A stretch of DNA of 64,000 nt. Source: Nitrososphaerota archaeon (GTDB taxonomy: Archaea; Thermoproteota; Nitrososphaeria; Nitrososphaerales; Nitrosopumilaceae). Under the pieces are notes generated by a model. It saw nothing but the letters and a program-made list of their open reading frames with translations. It made no database searches and was not told the origin of the DNA. The stretch is from assembly GCA_016201435.1 (NCBI GenBank), contig JACQCT010000014.1, positions 124,001-188,000 on the forward strand. The letters run 5' to 3'. Both the position numbers and the translations under genes were made by a program. Of this stretch, positions 7,227 through 59,458 are shown piece after piece (within the stretch, counting starts at the first letter, position 1; every line of letters begins with the position of its first letter).

Positions 7227-7559
7227 ATGTACGAATGTGAAGAATGCGAGGAAAAATCCGATTATTCCAAGTATAATGAACCAATAATAGTAGAATCAAA
7301 AACTGGAAAAAAAATGTTAATTCATCCTGAATGTTGTTCCACAGAAAATTTGATTAAAGTACTCGGAGAGATAGCGGAATCCGAGAGATTGTTTTATGAT
7401 GATGTATTAAGCCTTGTAAGAAATTGTGATTTTACAAAATTGCAAGAGTTTGAACAAAAGTACGGCACCTATGATGAAATTAGAAGTGGAATCTCCATTG
7501 ACAGGTTCAAAGGGATACTTGCCATTGTGACAGAACTTAAGAGTCGACATTTAAAATAA
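7227..7559 (+). CDS. Hypothetical protein with N-terminal CxxC
   Basis: A 110-residue protein I do not recognise. It opens with MYECEECEEK, a CxxC pair, and has a second His-Pro-Glu-Cys-Cys pair near residue 36, which together could form one zinc site. The rest is predicted helical (residues 40-110). The ATG is about 20 bases from an AT-rich promoter-like stretch, so the transcript may be nearly leaderless. It is divergent from trxB. Confidence 0.6.
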   Translation: MYECEECEEKSDYSKYNEPIIVESKTGKKMLIHPECCSTENLIKVLGEIAESERLFYDDVLSLVRNCDFTKLQEFEQKYGTYDEIRSGISIDRFKGILAIVTELKSRHLK

Positions 7560-7810
7560 TAAGACAAGTGCTAGCATCATCAAGTTAAAATTTAATAATA
7601 AAAATAAAAACAATCTTGAACAGTTAAATTTTTTCTACAGTTTTGAAGTGTCTTTTTAGATTTCTTATCAAGCAAATATGAATTAGATTTAAGGATTGTG
7701 ATAATTATCAATTATTATAATTAAAAAATGAAATGTGATTTTTGCAATAATTTGGACAAAGCCTTATCTATTAATTTTATCTTGGAATCATAGGGTTTGG
7801 CCGGTACTAA
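7560..7810. other. Intergenic stretch, no supported gene
   Basis: About 250 very AT-rich bases. The only thing seen is a 21-codon reading frame at 7728-7793 that starts MKCDFCNN; it has a CxxC pair but is too short to accept as a gene. It could be an upstream frame or the remains of a zinc-finger gene. Confidence 0.4.
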
Positions 7811-8347
7811 ATGGAAGAAAATTTAAACAAATCAAAAACTGTTTCTTTTCGTGTTCCTGAAAATACAATTAAAGAAGTAGAAATGGAGGCAAAAACAAAA
7901 TTAATTTCTACTAACACGCTGATAAACCAAATTCTTCTTGATTATGTATCATGGCATCGATATCAAAAAAGAATGAGAACATTTCCTGTATCTGAAGAAG
8001 TTTTAATCTATTTTATTGAATGCCTCAACGAATCACAAAGAAAAGAAGCAATAGAAATTTCATTCAATAGCCTTAGAGATTGGTCACTTGTATCAAAGAA
8101 AAAATTTGACCTACATTCTTGCTTGGAAGCACTTGAAGATTACTGTAGATTAGCAGGGATCTCAGTTGAGGACAGCATATTGTCAGGAAACCATTCTTTT
8201 GTTATACGCCACAATCTAAGTAGAAATGTTTCCTTACTCATATCTGAGCTTATTAAGAAAATTTTTTGGGAGCTTAAGAAGGTGAACTTGGAAACTCAGT
8301 TAACAAAAACTACCGTAATATCAAAACCGCTTTCTAGGATAGATTAG
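7811..8347 (+). CDS. Ribbon-helix-helix-like N-terminus, unknown C-terminus
   Basis: A 178-residue protein. Residues 8-55 fit a ribbon-helix-helix DNA-binding unit: a KTVSFRVPENTIKEVE strand-helix followed by STNTLINQILLDYVSW. The remaining 120 residues (KKFDLHSCLEALEDYC..., RHNLSRNVSLLISELIKKIF) are helical and unfamiliar, possibly a sensing or oligomerisation part. Its 3' end overlaps the convergent gene by 14 bases. Likely a transcription regulator; target unknown. Confidence 0.55.
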   Translation: MEENLNKSKTVSFRVPENTIKEVEMEAKTKLISTNTLINQILLDYVSWHRYQKRMRTFPVSEEVLIYFIECLNESQRKEAIEISFNSLRDWSLVSKKKFDLHSCLEALEDYCRLAGISVEDSILSGNHSFVIRHNLSRNVSLLISELIKKIFWELKKVNLETQLTKTTVISKPLSRID

Positions 8348-8822
8348 GCTCTTTTCTAGAAACAATCTGTTTTGAGTTGTCCTTGTCTTCTAAATCTGGT
8401 TTGTCTTGGACTAATTCAGTTTTTTTGTAAATATCTAGATATCTCTCAGCATCTTGCGTAATCTGTACGAGAGTTTTATTATTAGTCCTTAGATTGGTTT
8501 TCATATATTTTAGAAATTCAATATAAAATGAATCTAGGTGTTGGATACTTTGGATCCATGCTTCTGTTAACATATTAGATTGTTTTATGGCCATATTGTA
8601 ATTCCACCACGATGGGAAGTATTTTGCATATTTTTTTTGCAGATCTATATTCTGTTGAATCAGATCAAGCATACCGTAGAGGAACTCAGTATTGACGTCT
8701 AGACATGCAGTTGAAAAGCGTTTAGAAAAGTTCTCGCATTCCTGTATTCTTTGGACATAGTTTTCCTTCAGTTTATCAAAAAATTTTTCCTTACTTGAAA
8801 CAATTTCAATAGTCTGTGCCAT
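8334..8822 (-). CDS. Helical hypothetical protein
   Basis: A 162-residue, almost entirely helical acidic-basic protein without membrane segments. It has a FPSWWNYNMAIKQ core around residue 75 and a highly charged C-terminal tail. The shape (long amphipathic helices, aromatic cluster) recalls granule-associated or phasin-like proteins, but I see no diagnostic motif. The start at 8822 is chosen over 8837 because the leading residues are hydrophobic read-through of the promoter. Divergent from the DUF6659 gene. Confidence 0.55.
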   Translation of the reverse strand: MAQTIEIVSSKEKFFDKLKENYVQRIQECENFSKRFSTACLDVNTEFLYGMLDLIQQNIDLQKKYAKYFPSWWNYNMAIKQSNMLTEAWIQSIQHLDSFYIEFLKYMKTNLRTNNKTLVQITQDAERYLDIYKKTELVQDKPDLEDKDNSKQIVSRKEPNLS

Positions 8823-8854
8823 TATAATAAAATACATAATTTATTACATAAGTG

Positions 8855-8895
8855 TGTTGCAACAACTGCATGAATTTTATTGCAACTCTTTGCAA
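8855..8895. promoter_or_regulatory. TTGCAA repeat cluster in divergent promoter
   Basis: A perfect 10-bp palindrome TGTTGCAACA at 8855-8864 is followed by TTGCAAC at 8880-8886 and TTGCAA at 8890-8895. All lie between the divergent genes starting at 8822 and 8929. The arrangement suggests a regulator that reads TTGCAA half-sites. Confidence 0.4.
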
Positions 8896-8909
8896 GGCTT
8901 TTTGTACTA

Positions 8910-8926
8910 TCTCTATTAGATAGAGA
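8910..8926. promoter_or_regulatory. Inverted repeat next to start codon
   Basis: TCTCTAT-TAG-ATAGAGA forms a perfect 7-bp inverted repeat ending two bases before the ATG at 8929. It could be an operator overlapping the transcription start or a hairpin covering the initiation site. Confidence 0.4.
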
Positions 8927-8928
8927 CA

Positions 8929-9318
8929 ATGTTAGTCGAAACGAGTGATTTTTTGCCACAGATAAGAACTTTCTTAGAAGATGGAGTTGATTATATCGGA
9001 ATAATCAACAAATGTGGAAGACTGGAAGATTTTGCATCCAAAGAGGACATTAAACTTTCAGCAGAAAAACGAGAGATGTTTTGCATGGGATTAAGACTTC
9101 TGGGTTCTATGCAAGAAGATTATGATGATGAATTCGGACCTGTTAATTACAGTATGACTGAAAGGGAAAACTCAAAAATTTTATCAATACCTGCTTTTTC
9201 TCATACGATTCTAGCTATAATAAACAAGGATCTGGATCACACACAAGTAATAAACAAAATAAGAAGCATGATAGGTCCTAACATCTTAGCAAAATATAGA
9301 AAGGAGAAATTATCTTGA
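8929..9318 (+). CDS. DUF6659-like protein, first copy
   Basis: A 129-residue protein with the layout of the archaeal DUF6659 family: an N-terminal helix, IGIINKCGRLEDFAS (residues 23-37), a KREMFCMGLRLLGSMQEDYDDEFGPV segment and a strand-rich C-terminus ending in a helix with MIGPN. The same layout (INSMGRLVAGG, then DFDYSLGPVKYS) recurs in the gene at 58915-59298, so the two are paralogues. Profile resembles roadblock-type small regulatory proteins, but that is inference. It heads an operon with a zinc-ribbon gene and a patatin. Confidence 0.65.
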   Translation: MLVETSDFLPQIRTFLEDGVDYIGIINKCGRLEDFASKEDIKLSAEKREMFCMGLRLLGSMQEDYDDEFGPVNYSMTERENSKILSIPAFSHTILAIINKDLDHTQVINKIRSMIGPNILAKYRKEKLS

Positions 9319-9512
9319 ATATTTACGATACAAAGCAGATAAGTTGTTACAAATGTGGTAGATGTATAGGGGAAATTGATTATGACGCGATAATCATTAA
9401 TCCAAAATGCGGACTTTGTGCTAATCCATTACCCGAAAATGATGATAAATTAACATATTTGAAAAATAAATTTGAAAATGTAAACGAAAATGTAATTGTT
9501 GTAGAAAATTAA
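9315..9512 (+). CDS. Small zinc-ribbon protein
   Basis: A 65-residue protein with CYKCGRC near the start (residues 11-17) and CGLCANPL near residue 34, a probable four-Cys zinc site. It starts at TTG 9315, overlapping the upstream stop by four bases, and an AAGGAG ribosome site at 9301-9306 supports that start. It sits between the DUF6659-like and patatin genes. Confidence 0.6.
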   Translation: MNIYDTKQISCYKCGRCIGEIDYDAIIINPKCGLCANPLPENDDKLTYLKNKFENVNENVIVVEN

Positions 9513-9522
9513 TTATGTTGTG

Positions 9523-10624
9523 GTGAAGAAAATTATCTACAAAGACTAGTCAAAAACTATGTGATGAAACTGTTCTTGTATTACAGGGTGGAGGATCCTT
9601 AGGAGCATATGAGTGTGGGGTATATCAGACATTAGAAAAACTTGGAATAAAATGTAATGTAATTGCTGGAACTTCGATTGGAGGTGTTAATGCAGCAATA
9701 ATAGCTGCAAGTAAAAATGATGAACCTGCAAAGGATCTGGAAAACTTTTGGCTAACTTTGGCCGAAACTGTCACTCCATATTTTTTACCTGATAAGACTA
9801 GACAATTTTCATCATCAATGTATTCGGCAATCTGGGGTAACCCCAACGCCTTTGTGCCTTTATGGTTTAGACCAACCTTTAATCTTGTATACAACTCTCC
9901 TTATCTTTATGAGATCACGCCGTTAAAGGAGACGTTAAAAGAATATGTTGATTTTGAGAAGCTAAAGGAAGTTGGTAGACCAAGACTCATCATCACTTCA
10001 ACGGACATACAGAATGGAAAACCATCTGTATTTGATAGCAAACACGATGACATTCAGGCAGAACATGTACTTGCAAGTGCAGGTTATCCTTTCTATGGCA
10101 TCGCATGGACACACCTACGTGGCAAATATCTCTGGGATGGTACATTACTAAGTAACACTCCATTACGTGAGGTAATAGATGCCTCGCCAAGTTGCGACAA
10201 AAAAGTAATCATAGTCAACCTTTTTCCACACATACAAGAAGATCTTCCCAAAAATATGTCTGAAGCATGGCACAGAGCCAGAGACATTATGCATACTGAT
10301 AAAACTGATCACACCGTTAGAATGTCAAGAATCATTTCAAGATACTTGGACATCATAAAAAAAATGCATGATATTTTAGGATCTACTACACTTGATGAAA
10401 AAGCAAGAAAAAAGTTCGAAGAAATAGAACCAGAGTACCATAAGCTTGCCTGTGAGCGTGGTGCGATAATTAAACAAATAATACGTGTAGAACGGCAAGA
10501 AGATTCGCCTTTTCTTTTTGAGGATGCTGATTTTTCAATTGATACAATAAAACAACTAATACGAGATGGAATAAAAGATACCCAAAAGGTCTTTGCAAAG
10601 ATTCAAGGGAAAGATTGGCAATAG
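9523..10624 (+). CDS. Patatin-like phospholipase with apparent frameshift at codon 4
   Basis: Patatins are Ser-Asp dyad lipid acyl hydrolases. The reading frame that holds the family motifs is open only from 9527: QGGGSLGAYECG oxyanion loop at about 9584, GTSIGG nucleophile elbow at about 9668, and the WDGTLLSNTP aspartate near 10135. It has no ATG, GTG or TTG before 9758, which lies after the nucleophile. A GTG at 9523 followed by AAG AAA gives the right start if one A is removed from the AAAA run at 9529-9532; the product then begins MKKLS, matching MQKLS of the intact paralogue at 57807. So the gene is frameshifted by one base, is a recent pseudogene, or needs frameshifting. The rest of the frame is intact to 10624. 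Confidence 0.8.
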
Positions 10625-10694
10625 AACAGTGTCAAGAAAAGGGAATGCGAAACTTATAATAAAAATATATGTAATAAATAAAAAAATAGCAACT

Positions 10695-10901
10695 TTACTT
10701 TTTGGGTTCTGGTATTACTGCCTTGTCATGAGGACCACAGAGATGATCTCCACATACAAGATTAGGATCGTATAAGGCAGTTGAATGTCTGTTTGCACCT
10801 TGACCCTTTTGCAATGCAGCAGCTTCACCAAAGTTTGAAACTAATGCTATTGCAATTATCAGTATTGCAACCAATCCAACATATCTTAGTTTTTGATTCA
10901 T
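10695..10901 (-). CDS. Small exported protein with CGDHLCGPHDKA motif
   Basis: A 68-residue protein with an N-terminal membrane segment or signal peptide (residues 5-25, VGLVAILIIAIALVSNFGEA) and a short polar tail with two Cys and two His (VCGDHLCGPHDKAV). It may be secreted or membrane-anchored and could bind a metal. I do not know a function. Start at 10901 is chosen because the hydrophobic segment begins directly after it. Confidence 0.6.
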   Translation of the reverse strand: MNQKLRYVGLVAILIIAIALVSNFGEAAALQKGQGANRHSTALYDPNLVCGDHLCGPHDKAVIPEPKK

Positions 10902-10974
10902 GATTATCATACCACTTGAATCATTATACGGATTTAGTCAAATAATTAAAGAAAATTTTGAACAGTTAAGCTGG

Positions 10975-11160
10975 TTAATACGCGTGTGATGACATTAGAC
11001 TCTTTCTAACTATGAACTGTGTCAACGCTTCCTTTGAATATTCAATTCCGTGTTCTTCCGAAGAATGTTTTCCAAACTTCTTTATTATTTCCTGTACATC
11101 ATCCCCCTCGCTAACAAAATCACATTCAAATCCGTAATCTCTGCAACTAAATCTGACCAT
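10975..11160 (-). CDS. DUF1059 family small protein
   Basis: A 61-residue protein matching the DUF1059 pattern: FSCRDYGFECDF at the N-terminus, a helix with IIKKFGKHSSEEHGIEYS and a short final helix. Family function is unknown. It starts with ATG at 11160 and has its own promoter region. Confidence 0.8.
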   Translation of the reverse strand: MVRFSCRDYGFECDFVSEGDDVQEIIKKFGKHSSEEHGIEYSKEALTQFIVRKSLMSSHAY

Positions 11161-11455
11161 TGAATGATCTTATGTTGTCTTTTCTTTTATAGTTGATAGA
11201 AGATTATCAGATTTGATTTTTAAAGTTGTTTTAAAACGTAACAGCATGCGAGTTAAAGGTAGTCTTTTACCTATCTGATTCATAGGATTCACTTCATCAT
11301 CACGCTACCAAAATGTGGTGCTTGTAAGAAAACAACTTCGGAGATTGACGGTAGACCAGCATGTGTCATATCTATATCCGGGTGAACTATCAAACATGCC
11401 TATGCCAAGTCATAAAATTCTCACTTTGTCGATGCTTTTTACATGTTACAGTTGC
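11161..11455. other. Intergenic stretch with a start-less Cys-rich frame
   Basis: About 295 bases without an acceptable gene. On the plus strand, 11263-11394 reads as a frame with KCGACKKT and RPAC, which looks like coding sequence for a zinc site, but it has no ATG, GTG or TTG and is closed by TGA. It may be a gene remnant. Confidence 0.3.
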
Positions 11456-56310: not shown

Positions 56311-57699
56311 TTATTCTACGTGATGATGGTGAACCAACTGATCATAGAATCTTATTGATTTTATGTTGACAAACTCTAACATACCATATCTTGATAGTTC
56401 TCTTCCAAATCCACTGTGTTTTACACCACCAAAAGGAATTCGAGGGTCTGAAATCAAGACGTTGTTAACTGTCACCATTCCAGATTCTACCATTCTTGAT
56501 AGTTTTTCTGCCTTTACCAGATCCTGTGTCCATATACTTGCTCCAAGACCATATTGAGAATCATTTGCAATTTTTATTGCTTCCATCTCACTATTAACAA
56601 CAGTAATTGGCGCCACAGGACCAAATGTTTCCTCTTGCGCCATGCGCATTTTTGGAGAAATCTTGGCAATAACAGTAGGGCTGTAGAAATAGCCTTTGTC
56701 TTTGATTCGTTTTCCACCAGTCAACACTTCTGCACCGTTTTTGACAGCATCAGTTACCAGTTCATCTATCTTATTCAGACCATCAATGTTTACCAGTGGA
56801 CCAATATCAGTATCCTCCAAAGTAGGGTCACCAACACGAAGTTTTTCTGTATTTTGAACAAATTTTTCAATAAATTCTTTTGAAATATTTTTTGTTACCA
56901 AGAATCGTTTTGATGCAATACAGCTCTGACCGCAATTAATAAAACGGCCTTTGACAGCTCCATTTGCGGCCTTTGCCACATCAGCATCATCACAAACTAT
57001 GAAAGGATCACTACCTCCTAGCTCAAGAACGCATTTTTTTAGCTGCGATGTTGCTCTCTGAGCTACCTTTGCCCCTATTGAGGTACTTCCCGTAAATGTT
57101 ACCGCGTTTATATCAGAATCAATCATTGATTCCACAATACTCGAGTCACCAACTAGAGTTTGGAACACACCTTCAGGAAATCCCGCTTTTCTAAACAAAT
57201 GTTCGATTTCAATTCCACATTGCATTGTTGCACTAGCTGGTTTGAGAACAATGGTATTTCCTGCCATTAGCGATGGTGCTGCAAATCGTAGTGCTTGCCA
57301 ATAAGGAAAGTTCCACGGCATTATACTTCCTATTATTCCAATTGGTTCAAATGACAAAAAGCTCTTTCTTGCATCAGTGTTAACAATCTCATGATTCAAG
57401 AAAATATCTCCATTGTCACCATAAAATTCCATAGCCCACGCACATTTTTCAACTTCAGAAAGCGCTTCCTTGATTGGCTTTCCCATTTCTTTGGTTGCAA
57501 CACGAGCAAGATCAGTTTTATTTTTTCTTAATTCATCAGCTAAAGTATGTACAAACGCAGATCTTTTTTTAATGTCCTTCTTCCATTCATTAAAAGCAGA
57601 TCTTGATTTTTTTACAGATTCGTTGATCTTTTCTTTACTTATGATTTGATATTCAGCAATGATTTGTTCGGTAGTAGGATTAATTGTTTTTACTGTCAT
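56311..57699 (-). CDS. Succinate-semialdehyde dehydrogenase-type aldehyde dehydrogenase
   Basis: A 462-residue NAD(P)-dependent aldehyde dehydrogenase. MPWNFPYWQALRFAAPSLMAGN, TFTGSTSIG, catalytic E226 (LELGGSDPF) and C260 (NCGQSCIAS) are all present, with an intact C-terminus. Close in pattern to GabD/Sad-type enzymes; in this phylum such an enzyme serves succinate-semialdehyde steps of the 3-hydroxypropionate/4-hydroxybutyrate cycle. The protein ends in a natural HHHHVE tail. Divergent from the patatin gene across a strong inverted repeat. Confidence 0.8.
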   Translation of the reverse strand: MTVKTINPTTEQIIAEYQIISKEKINESVKKSRSAFNEWKKDIKKRSAFVHTLADELRKNKTDLARVATKEMGKPIKEALSEVEKCAWAMEFYGDNGDIFLNHEIVNTDARKSFLSFEPIGIIGSIMPWNFPYWQALRFAAPSLMAGNTIVLKPASATMQCGIEIEHLFRKAGFPEGVFQTLVGDSSIVESMIDSDINAVTFTGSTSIGAKVAQRATSQLKKCVLELGGSDPFIVCDDADVAKAANGAVKGRFINCGQSCIASKRFLVTKNISKEFIEKFVQNTEKLRVGDPTLEDTDIGPLVNIDGLNKIDELVTDAVKNGAEVLTGGKRIKDKGYFYSPTVIAKISPKMRMAQEETFGPVAPITVVNSEMEAIKIANDSQYGLGASIWTQDLVKAEKLSRMVESGMVTVNNVLISDPRIPFGGVKHSGFGRELSRYGMLEFVNIKSIRFYDQLVHHHHVE

Positions 57700-57806: not shown

Positions 57807-58904
57807 ATGCAAAAGTTATCAGCACATGACGATAAAAATTTGGATTTTGAAACAGTACTTGTATTACAAGGCGGCGGTTCTCTTGGCGCCTATGAATGCG
57901 GAGTTTACAAAACATTAGATAAACACCGAATAAAGTTCGATGTAGTTGCAGGAACTTCCATGGGTGGAATTAACGCGGCCATAATAGCTGGGTCCAAAAG
58001 TGATGCGCCTGTAAAGAACCTTGAAGATTTTTGGTTAAATCTGGCAGAAACTGTAACTCCATCATTTCTATCACAAGATAAACGGGCACAATTATCATCA
58101 ATGTATGTTTCCATGTGGGGAACTCCTAATGCATTCCAGCCCATATGGTTTATACCAAATTTATTCAGTTTTCTGTATAGTAATAGTCCCTACCTTTATG
58201 ATGTGGAACCATTAAAAAAGACAATAAAAAATTATATTGATTTTGAAAAATTAAAAAATCCAGATAGCCCCAGACTTATCATTACATCTACAGATGTACA
58301 AAACGGAAAGCCTTCCATATTTGATAGCAAGTATGATAAAATTAACGAGTCTCATATTGTTGCAGGTTGTGGTTATCCTTTCTACGGTATTGCATGGACA
58401 GAAGTAAGTGGCAGGTATCTATGGGACGGATCATTGTTGAGCAACACTCCATTAACCGAAGTGATAAACGCGTCACCAATATATGATAAAAAAGTGTATG
58501 TGGTTGATCTGTTTCCACATATACAAGAAAACCTACCAAAAAATATGATGGAATCATGGCACAGAGCTAGAGACATCATGGATTCAGACAAGAGCGAGCA
58601 TGCAATCAGAATGTCAAAAATTATTTCAAGATATCTTTCTTTGATAAAAAACATGCATGATTTTATAGAATCTTCCAATCTTGATGAAAAAGCAAAAAAG
58701 AAGTTTGAAAAAATAGAATCGGAATATGACAAACTAGCATGTCAACGAGGTACAATAATAAGGGAAATAATTCGCATAAGGCGACAAGAAGAAGGAGACT
58801 CACACTTTCTATTTGAGAATGCAGACTTTTCACTTGCTACCATTAAACAACTGATAAGTGATGGGGAAAAAGACGCAGAGAAAGTGTTGTTAGCTAAATC
58901 ATAG
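57807..58904 (+). CDS. Patatin-like phospholipase, intact copy
   Basis: A 365-residue lipid acyl hydrolase. QGGGSLGAYECGVY (21-34) is the oxyanion loop, GTSMGG holds nucleophile S51, and WDGSLLSNTPL holds D207. The C-terminal 120 residues are helical. ATG at 57807 is chosen because the paralogue at 9523 aligns there. It would release fatty acids from lipids at the membrane; archaeal ether lipids lack acyl groups, so its target may be imported or bacterial lipid. Convergent with a DUF6659-like gene. Confidence 0.88.
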   Translation: MQKLSAHDDKNLDFETVLVLQGGGSLGAYECGVYKTLDKHRIKFDVVAGTSMGGINAAIIAGSKSDAPVKNLEDFWLNLAETVTPSFLSQDKRAQLSSMYVSMWGTPNAFQPIWFIPNLFSFLYSNSPYLYDVEPLKKTIKNYIDFEKLKNPDSPRLIITSTDVQNGKPSIFDSKYDKINESHIVAGCGYPFYGIAWTEVSGRYLWDGSLLSNTPLTEVINASPIYDKKVYVVDLFPHIQENLPKNMMESWHRARDIMDSDKSEHAIRMSKIISRYLSLIKNMHDFIESSNLDEKAKKKFEKIESEYDKLACQRGTIIREIIRIRRQEEGDSHFLFENADFSLATIKQLISDGEKDAEKVLLAKS

Positions 58905-58914
58905 AGAAACCAGT

Positions 58915-59298
58915 TTATTGTAATCCGATTATTTTCATAATCTTATTTGCAAACTTGTCTATATCCACAGTTGGCTCTGCAGAAACTAACAATACGTTTG
59001 AGTTTATTGGAAAGCTTATCATTACTGCATTTTGTCTGCGCGATGCAGAGTACTTGACAGGACCAAGACTATAATCAAAGTCTTTTCTCATAGATACTCG
59101 TAATGCCAACTCCATGTACATTTTTTGTCTCTCTGCATCATCTTCAAGTGGTGTTATTCCGTCTTTAAAACCACCTGCAACAAGTCTACCCATTGAATTT
59201 ATGCAGCCTGCGAATCTGATTGCGTCATCTTGTAAAAGATTTCTACATTTTTGATCAAATAGCCAATATTCATCTGTTTTTTCTTTTTGTGTACTCAT
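58915..59298 (-). CDS. DUF6659-like protein, second copy
   Basis: A 127-residue protein with the DUF6659 pattern: a DEYWLFDQKCRNLL start, RFAGCINSMGRLVAGGFKDG, MELALRVSMRKDFDYSLGPVKYS, and a strand-rich end. It is paralogous to the protein at 8929. ATG 59298 is used; the upstream in-frame starts give hydrophobic residues. It is convergent with the patatin gene, ten bases apart. Confidence 0.7.
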   Translation of the reverse strand: MSTQKEKTDEYWLFDQKCRNLLQDDAIRFAGCINSMGRLVAGGFKDGITPLEDDAERQKMYMELALRVSMRKDFDYSLGPVKYSASRRQNAVMISFPINSNVLLVSAEPTVDIDKFANKIMKIIGLQ

Positions 59299-59458
59299 TA
59301 CCAATAATTCATTATTATGACATAAAAACGCTACTACCATTTTCATTTAGTTTATTATATTATTTCATTATGATACATACAAACGGTTAACATATCTCAT
59401 AAAAAATAATTAGCGCAAAAGTTGTTAAACTAAAATAATACGCATTTAATTTACGGTT

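What the first reader, a model, noticed from the sequence alone, without database searches (positions are those of the whole stretch)
8929..10624. Patatin linked to DUF6659 twice in one window
A DUF6659-like gene, a zinc-ribbon gene and a patatin form one operon here; at 57807-59298 a second patatin sits ten bases from a second DUF6659-like gene. The linkage is kept although gene order and orientation differ, which points to a functional pair, perhaps a lipid hydrolase with its regulator.
Basis: partly seen in the sequence, partly recalled or inferred. Interest (0 to 1): 0.65.

Follow-up and report, generated by a model that had tools for sequence, protein, structure and literature searches.

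The report
Archaeal storage-polyester breakdown gene module
The two gene pairs look like parts of a kit with which ammonia-oxidizing archaea use up a stored bioplastic: a candidate polyester-cutting enzyme plus a small Roadblock-shaped protein of unknown role that is also found next to the plastic-making genes in many relatives.

Summary
Both patatin-DUF6659 pairs are in the window, and a third lies 3.5 kb upstream of it; these are the genome's only three patatins. Two corrections: the first patatin (9527-10624) lacks a start codon, because an in-frame TGA follows the ATG; and gene order suggests an operon at 8929-10624 but does not prove one.

In relatives the link is enriched. DUF6659 lies within 2 kb of 16 of 60 patatins of this type (2.1 expected) and of 0 of 19 other patatins. 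The stronger association is with polyhydroxyalkanoate (PHA) genes. DUF6659 sits 11-102 bp from, and divergent to, phaE-phaC in 51 of 60 phaC loci. Patatins of this type have phaC, phaE or a phasin-like gene within 5 kb in 30 of 60 loci (other patatins 0 of 19). They are distant full-length homologues of a Haloferax patatin that is probably the PHA depolymerase PhaZh1.

Models of both window DUF6659 proteins have the Roadblock/LC7 fold.

Best reading: the patatin is a candidate for the depolymerase reported missing from ammonia oxidizers, and DUF6659 is a Roadblock-fold adaptor of PHA metabolism. No activity was tested. 'Lipid hydrolase with its regulator' is partly right.

The parts
7811..8347 (+). 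ribbon-helix-helix (RHH) type regulator gene
   Evidence: weak CopG/HicB Pfam matches (E 0.01-0.02, below cut-off); same cluster as the RHH gene beside Nitrosotalea PHA-cluster patatins
8334..8837 (-). alpha-helical protein, unassigned; a link to the phasin-like cluster was tested and is not significant (E 0.24)
   Evidence: relatives precede two other patatins and a patatin fragment (L132, L172, L155)
8857..8895 (+). three TTGCAA boxes in the divergent gap before the DUF6659 gene, possible regulator site
8929..9318 (+). DUF6659-like protein, Roadblock/LC7 fold (129 aa)
9315..9512 (+). small zinc-ribbon protein (65 aa)
   Evidence: weak DUF7479 match E 0.006; two relatives among the patatin loci, L148 and L159, in L148 again next to a DUF6659
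9527..10624 (+). patatin 1, catalytic motifs intact, no start codon in frame (ATG 9515 then TGA 9524-9526)
10695..10910 (-). small secreted-type peptide of a family seen at five of 79 patatin loci
10835..10870 (.). TTGCAA-N9-TTGCAA sites (10850 exact, 10835 one mismatch) inside the start of the 10695-10910 ORF
56311..57699 (-). aldehyde dehydrogenase, nearest named family succinate-semialdehyde dehydrogenase (below cut-off), divergent from patatin 2
57807..58904 (+). patatin 2, Ser92/Asp248 (numbered from 57684) and oxyanion motif present
58915..59346 (-). DUF6659 protein, Roadblock/LC7 fold, convergent with patatin 2

Best explanation
The patatins are intracellular PHA depolymerases of the PhaZh1 type. 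They hydrolyse the stored polyester of PHA granules with a Ser-Asp dyad, and the neighbouring aldehyde dehydrogenase (and an alcohol dehydrogenase at the third locus) oxidizes a released hydroxyacid. DUF6659 is a Roadblock/LC7-fold protein that belongs to the PHA system as a whole: one subfamily is divergent from phaE-phaC, others sit beside patatin. It probably forms dimers that act as an adaptor or regulatory platform for synthase, depolymerase or their regulators. Where an RHH gene is present, it may control the module through TTGCAA-N9-TTGCAA sites. Shown by computation: homology, catalytic residues, fold, gene linkage, co-occurrence of sites with the RHH gene. Inferred: substrate, monomer pathway, role of DUF6659, operator function.
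For: Class III PhaC (414 bits, cut-off 365.3) and PhaE (PF09712 55.2 bits, cut-off 25.7) in the Nitrosotalea clusters. phaC, phaE or phasin-like gene within 5 kb of 30 of 60 such patatins, phaC of 26, against 0 of 19 for other patatins. Patatin 1 is sister to the Nitrosotalea PHA-cluster patatins (SH-aLRT 96). Own genome: ABH> AbrB-like> phasin-like> phaC< phaE< DUF6659>. DUF6659 divergent from phaE, gap 11-102 bp, in 51 of 60 phaC loci. The DUF6659 subclade of window 8929-9318 (6 rows) is beside patatin and RHH in 6 of 6. Homology to the Haloferax patatin beside an SDR gene: E 2e-14 (patatin 2), 7e-18 (Nitrosotalea), motifs shared. Roadblock fold, two models: Foldseek E 1.8e-6 and 8.3e-7; Z 14.5 for the first. 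RHH and site: 8 of 11 against 1 of 49. [quoted passage not shown]
Against: 30 of 60 such patatins have no PHA gene within 5 kb, some for lack of contig, others truly; in the own genome phaC is on another contig. In the 400-genome sample PhaC is in 265 and patatin in 123, so most PHA makers need another depolymerase. An alpha/beta hydrolase in the same clusters resembles the short-chain PHA depolymerase model (111 bits, cut-off 300). In Haloferax, deleting phaZh1 had no significant effect on PHA mobilization (PMC4823750, passage). DUF6659 has 17 copies in this genome and many family members lie away from PHA genes (48 of 92 rows outside the three named subclades have no named neighbour within 2.5 kb, though many loci are only 3.3 kb long). 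Patatin 1 may not be translated. The fold models rest on 8 sequences each.
Confidence: 0.58

Rival explanations
1. The patatin is a phospholipase or general lipase that remodels membranes or the lipid coat of granules; its place beside PHA genes reflects granule biology, but the polyester is cut by the alpha/beta hydrolase of the cluster.
For: Nearest solved structures by sequence are the patatin-like PlpD (E 3.5e-7) and CapV phospholipase; NCBIfam's best hit is CBASS lipase, far below cut-off; the cluster's alpha/beta hydrolase resembles a PHA depolymerase model.
Against: The archaeal patatin reported in the PHA papers I saw is a depolymerase (PMC4823750 passage), and these proteins are distant full-length homologues of the Haloferax gene taken to be it. 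Other patatins have no PHA genes nearby, 0 of 19.
Confidence: 0.25
2. Paralogous spread: DUF6659 is a frequent gene family (about 15 copies per genome), and the patatin pairs are copies of one ancestral neighbourhood carried along by duplication, with no shared function.
For: About 9.5 DUF6659 per Mb; the three loci of the own genome lie within 63 kb of one contig; same-genus pairs are orthologous.
Against: The three pairs carry DUF6659s of different subclades and in different gene orders; 7 of 15 patatin groups at 70% identity have at least one member with a DUF6659 within 2 kb; phaE-DUF6659 adjacency is kept in ten genera.
Confidence: 0.15
3. A phospholipase-effector defence pair, with DUF6659 as sensor or antitoxin.
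For: PADLOC phospholipase effector profiles match (E 3e-14 to 8e-5).
Against: Patatin profiles cross-match by fold; DUF6659 matches no defence profile beyond a WH_III-A hit at E 0.005; the neighbourhoods are metabolic.
Confidence: 0.02

Closest known systems
PhaZh1-type patatin PHA depolymerase (Haloferax mediterranei; WP_004060664.1 taken as PhaZh1 from its neighbour and by recall)
   Same: Patatin family, QGGGS / GTSxG / WDG motifs invariant in the joint alignment, full-length alignment, dehydrogenase gene as neighbour
   Different: Only 22-25% identity; neighbour is a succinate-semialdehyde-type ALDH, not an SDR; in Nitrosotalea the gene lies inside the phaCE cluster; no activity data
Class III PHA synthase clusters (phaR-phaP-phaE-phaC of Haloferax, PMC4823750 passage; phaCE of AOA)
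   Same: PhaC and PhaE subunits, an AbrB-like gene and a phasin-like gene together
   Different: Divergent Roadblock-fold DUF6659 beside phaE; patatin, ALDH and RHH added in Nitrosotalea; phasin identity not confirmed
Roadblock/LC7 proteins (MglB, Ragulator p14, Asgard Roadblock 7yh1)
   Same: alpha-beta-beta-alpha-beta-beta-beta-alpha order, Z 11-14 over about 110 residues
   Different: About 9-14% identity, no Robl_LC7 Pfam match in 24 members, no Arf-family GTPase found in the own genome, genomic context is PHA storage

Membership tests
Patatin (PF01734) | score over the curated cut-off and Ser-Asp dyad | tested here: met
   101.2 and 91.0 bits, cut-off 27.7; S92, D248 and oxyanion glycines invariant in 9 aligned sequences
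PhaZh1-type PHA depolymerase | full-length homology to PhaZh1 | tested here: met
   E 2e-14 and 7e-18, 22-25% identity; identity of the reference as PhaZh1 is by neighbour and recall
PhaZh1-type PHA depolymerase | hydrolysis of native PHA, granule location | not testable with these tools
   needs enzyme and granule experiments
PhaZh1-type PHA depolymerase | gene neighbourhood with PHA metabolism | tested here: inconclusive
   30 of 60 relatives yes, 0 of 19 other patatins; no PhaC or PhaE match within 5 kb of the three own-genome patatins (a phasin-like gene at the third)
DUF6659 (PF20364) | score over the curated cut-off | tested here: inconclusive
   58915-59346: 93.6 bits, met; 8929-9318: 22.9 bits, cut-off 27, not met, but recovered by iterative profile and same predicted fold
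Roadblock/LC7 | fold | tested here: met
   the 50 Foldseek rows listed for each model are Roadblock, MglB, MP1-p14, Ragulator or dynein/microtubule-complex chains; Z 14.5
Roadblock/LC7 | match to the Robl_LC7 sequence model | tested here: not met
   0 of 24 members at E 1; so 'Roadblock fold', not filed as Robl_LC7 family
Roadblock/LC7 | Ras-like GTPase partner | tested here: inconclusive
   no PF00025 match at E 0.01 in the own 96%-complete genome, control rang in 13 of 14; other GTPase families not searched
Class III PHA synthase | PhaC over TIGR01836 cut-off, PhaE subunit beside it | tested here: met
   own-genome PhaC 422.2 bits, cut-off 365.3; PhaE over the PF09712 cut-off in the Nitrosotalea representative

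The most novel reading that the evidence does not exclude
Ammonia-oxidizing archaea control their polyester granules with a multi-copy family of Roadblock-fold adaptors (DUF6659) that works without a classic small-GTPase partner, pairing one paralogue with the synthase (phaE) and others with a patatin depolymerase; the ALDH/ADH partners would mean that the polymer contains 4-hydroxybutyrate drawn from the carbon-fixation cycle.
Probability: 0.25. Interest if true: 0.82.

Novelty: new variant of a known kind. Interest (0 to 1): 0.62.

Why it matters
AOA are reported to make PHA but to lack canonical depolymerases (PMC3835317, passage), and a storage-granule study of N. maritimus names no PhaZ among its six PHA genes (PMC11082331, passages). 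A patatin inside PHA clusters is a directly testable candidate for at least part of the group. DUF6659, a family called 'unknown function' in Pfam, gains a fold and a conserved gene partner (phaE), which turns a blank in many nitrifier genomes into a specific hypothesis about carbon storage in some of the most abundant archaea.

Tried and rejected
Phasin identity of the window protein 8334-8837: tested against the phasin-like cluster by HMM (E 0.24) and hhalign (probability 19%), not accepted. The phasin label of cluster 1 itself rests on its place, its helical make-up and a weak PhaR match (E 0.008).

Small-GTPase partner for DUF6659: only the Arf model was searched, in the own genome alone, with no match. 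DUF6659 against solved structures by sequence gave nothing; fold search was needed.

Sigma-70-like promoters and terminators in 7500-11200: no more than shuffles give.

The fuzzy operator scan with two mismatches had a high background (0.10 per 310 bp) and was replaced by the one-mismatch scan. In the window the sites are not placed as in Nitrosotalea: the exact N9 site lies within a small ORF downstream of patatin 1, and the upstream boxes have other spacings.

Defence-system reading: considered and set aside.

Literature: DUF6659 0 papers. Patatin + 'ammonia-oxidizing archaea' 4 papers; only the skin-AOA paper was opened, and its one passage concerns lipases of Nitrosocosmicus. Roadblock + polyhydroxyalkanoate 33 papers, 10 listed, titles and abstract starts only, none on this subject. 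Thaumarchaeota + roadblock 9, thaumarchaeota + phasin 17 (8 listed): nothing on this subject in the listings. 'Not in print' is therefore limited to these searches of an open-licence library; the PhaZh1 paper itself was not held.

The 19 'other' patatins are those scoring 300 bits or less; they include short frames or fragments (L134, L155, L185), of which L155 looks like a cut copy of the main type. Locus L198 was a mistaken 100-base fetch and was dropped. For the 60 phaC loci I took family members whose coordinates were listed (score-ranked, list truncated), mostly outside Nitrosotalea, plus one locus, G034, placed between two DUF6659 genes already known (L277); this may flatter the 51 of 60 a little.

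Full report
WHAT IS THERE. The window is part of a 326-kb contig of a 1.84-Mb, 66-contig genome (96% complete, 8.9% contaminated). Relatives with names are Nitrosopumilales/Thaumarchaeota MAGs and Candidatus Nitrosotalea. At 8929-9318 lies a DUF6659-like gene, at 9315-9512 a zinc-ribbon gene and at 9527-10624 a patatin frame. At 57807-58904 lies a second patatin, convergent with a DUF6659 gene at 58915-59346, 10 bp apart. Two corrections: patatin 1 has no usable start in its frame (ATG 9515, TGA 9524-9526, then open to the stop), so it may be a recent pseudogene or an assembly error, although its catalytic residues are intact and it is 67% identical to patatin 2; and the 'operon' is inferred from gene order only.

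A THIRD PAIR. The genome has exactly three patatins. The third, 3.5 kb upstream of the window, stands in the order phasin-like> c26> DUF6659> ALDH< patatin> ADH<. An aldehyde dehydrogenase is also divergent from patatin 2 (56311-57699). Its nearest named families are succinate-semialdehyde dehydrogenases, below their cut-offs.

SURVEY OF PATATINS. Of 400 genomes of the order, 123 have a patatin. I fetched 73 patatin loci from the 54 patatin-bearing genomes of the window's family and 6 from other families. Sixty resemble the window's patatins (over 300 bits); 19 do not. DUF6659 lies within 2 kb of 16 of 60 against 2.13 expected from 826 DUF6659 matches in 87 Mb (genome sizes rounded), and of 0 of 19 others. 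Loci are related, so the Poisson p of 1e-9 overstates the case; after grouping at 70% identity, 7 of 15 groups have at least one such member. Within 5 kb, 26 of 60 have phaC, 30 have phaC, phaE or a phasin-like gene and 29 have the ALDH; of the 19 others none has a PHA gene.

THE PHA CLUSTER. In Nitrosotalea the common order is RHH< DUF6659< ALDH< patatin> ABH> AbrB-like/phasin-like> phaC< phaE< phasin-like> ABH> (members vary, and a second arrangement has the patatin at the other end of the cluster). PhaC is over the class III cut-off and PhaE over the Pfam cut-off. The own genome carries ABH> AbrB-like> phasin-like> phaC< phaE< DUF6659> on contig C21.

DUF6659 BELONGS TO PHA GENES. In 60 phaC loci (59 genomes; 56 of the loci outside Nitrosotalea), DUF6659 is divergent from phaE with a gap of 11-102 bp in 51. 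The 9 without it are four Nitrosotalea loci (L273-L276), two cut contigs (L237, L256), a second phaC copy (L272) and L223 and L263. The 51 come from ten genera (labels, counted by hand). In the DUF6659 tree (173 rows, few columns, FastTree) these form most of one clade: 51 of 56 rows have phaE nearby. The clade of window 8929-9318 has six rows, all beside patatin and RHH. The clade of window 58915-59346 has 19 rows, of which 5 are beside patatin and 11, all in loci of 3.3 kb or less, have no named neighbour. So the patatin link was made more than once, or moved, and is not obligatory.

FOLD. AlphaFold2 models of both window DUF6659 proteins (8 sequences each; pLDDT 74 and 80) match Roadblock/LC7 structures: Foldseek E 1.8e-6 and 8.3e-7 for the best hits, VIA-align Z 14.5 with rmsd 2.3 over 111 residues for the first. 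None of 24 members matches the Robl_LC7 Pfam model, and no Arf-type GTPase was found in this genome. I therefore describe a Roadblock fold, not membership in the GTPase-regulator family.

ENZYME. The Haloferax mediterranei patatin WP_004060664.1, next to an SDR gene on plasmid pHME505, which I take to be PhaZh1 (by neighbour and recall), aligns over most of its length with patatin 2 (E 2e-14) and a Nitrosotalea PHA-cluster patatin (E 7e-18), with QGGGS, GTSxG and WDG invariant in the joint alignment. A paper reports PhaZh1 as a PHA depolymerase whose deletion had no significant effect on mobilization (PMC4823750, passages). In the tree, patatin 1 is sister to the Nitrosotalea PHA-cluster patatins.

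REGULATION. TTGCAA-N9-TTGCAA (at most one mismatch) lies just upstream of the patatin in 8 of 11 loci that have the RHH gene within 5 kb and in 1 of 49 that do not; that one, L165, has under 0.7 kb of contig on the RHH side. The window has an exact site at 10850 and a second, overlapping one at 10835, plus three TTGCAA boxes at 8857-8895 beside its RHH gene; TTGCAA pairs with 0-18 bases between number 4 in the window against 0.48 expected. Spacing and position differ from Nitrosotalea, so this is a lead only.

KNOWN AND NEW. PHA synthase in AOA is well known (PMC4084955, PMC7554672, PMC8397731, passages), and absence of canonical depolymerases is stated in PMC3835317 (passage). In the searches named under Tried and rejected I found no paper on DUF6659 and none that links patatin to PHA in AOA.

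VERDICT. A real, enriched linkage, better explained by PHA storage than by a private lipid-hydrolase pair. Substrate, monomer pathway and the role of DUF6659 remain inferences.

Noticed in passing
L225-L277, e.g. L236:851-1225 and L236:6759-7151: In many Nitrosopumilaceae a second, different DUF6659 lies on the other side of the PHA cluster, a few genes beyond the alpha/beta hydrolase, so the cluster is flanked by two DUF6659 genes.
   Followed up: partly
window 10695-10910 (-); L121:9438-9650; L152:10763-10987: Small secreted-type peptides with a CGxHLCxP-like motif (by eye) recur in 5 of 79 patatin loci.
   Followed up: no
L138:5263-5682 and L015:534-950: A conserved protein next to phaC ends in an AbrB-type domain (TIGR01439 26.3 bits, cut-off 28.3), like the AbrB-like PhaR of Haloferax (recalled); it may be the AOA counterpart.
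   Followed up: no
L136, L156, L168, L186: In genus g17 the ALDH-patatin pair sits next to a gene that reads like a TFB transcription factor (by eye) and has no DUF6659 nearby.
   Followed up: no
window 9515-9526: In-frame TGA three codons after the only ATG of patatin 1; pseudogene, recoding or assembly error cannot be told apart here.
   Followed up: partly
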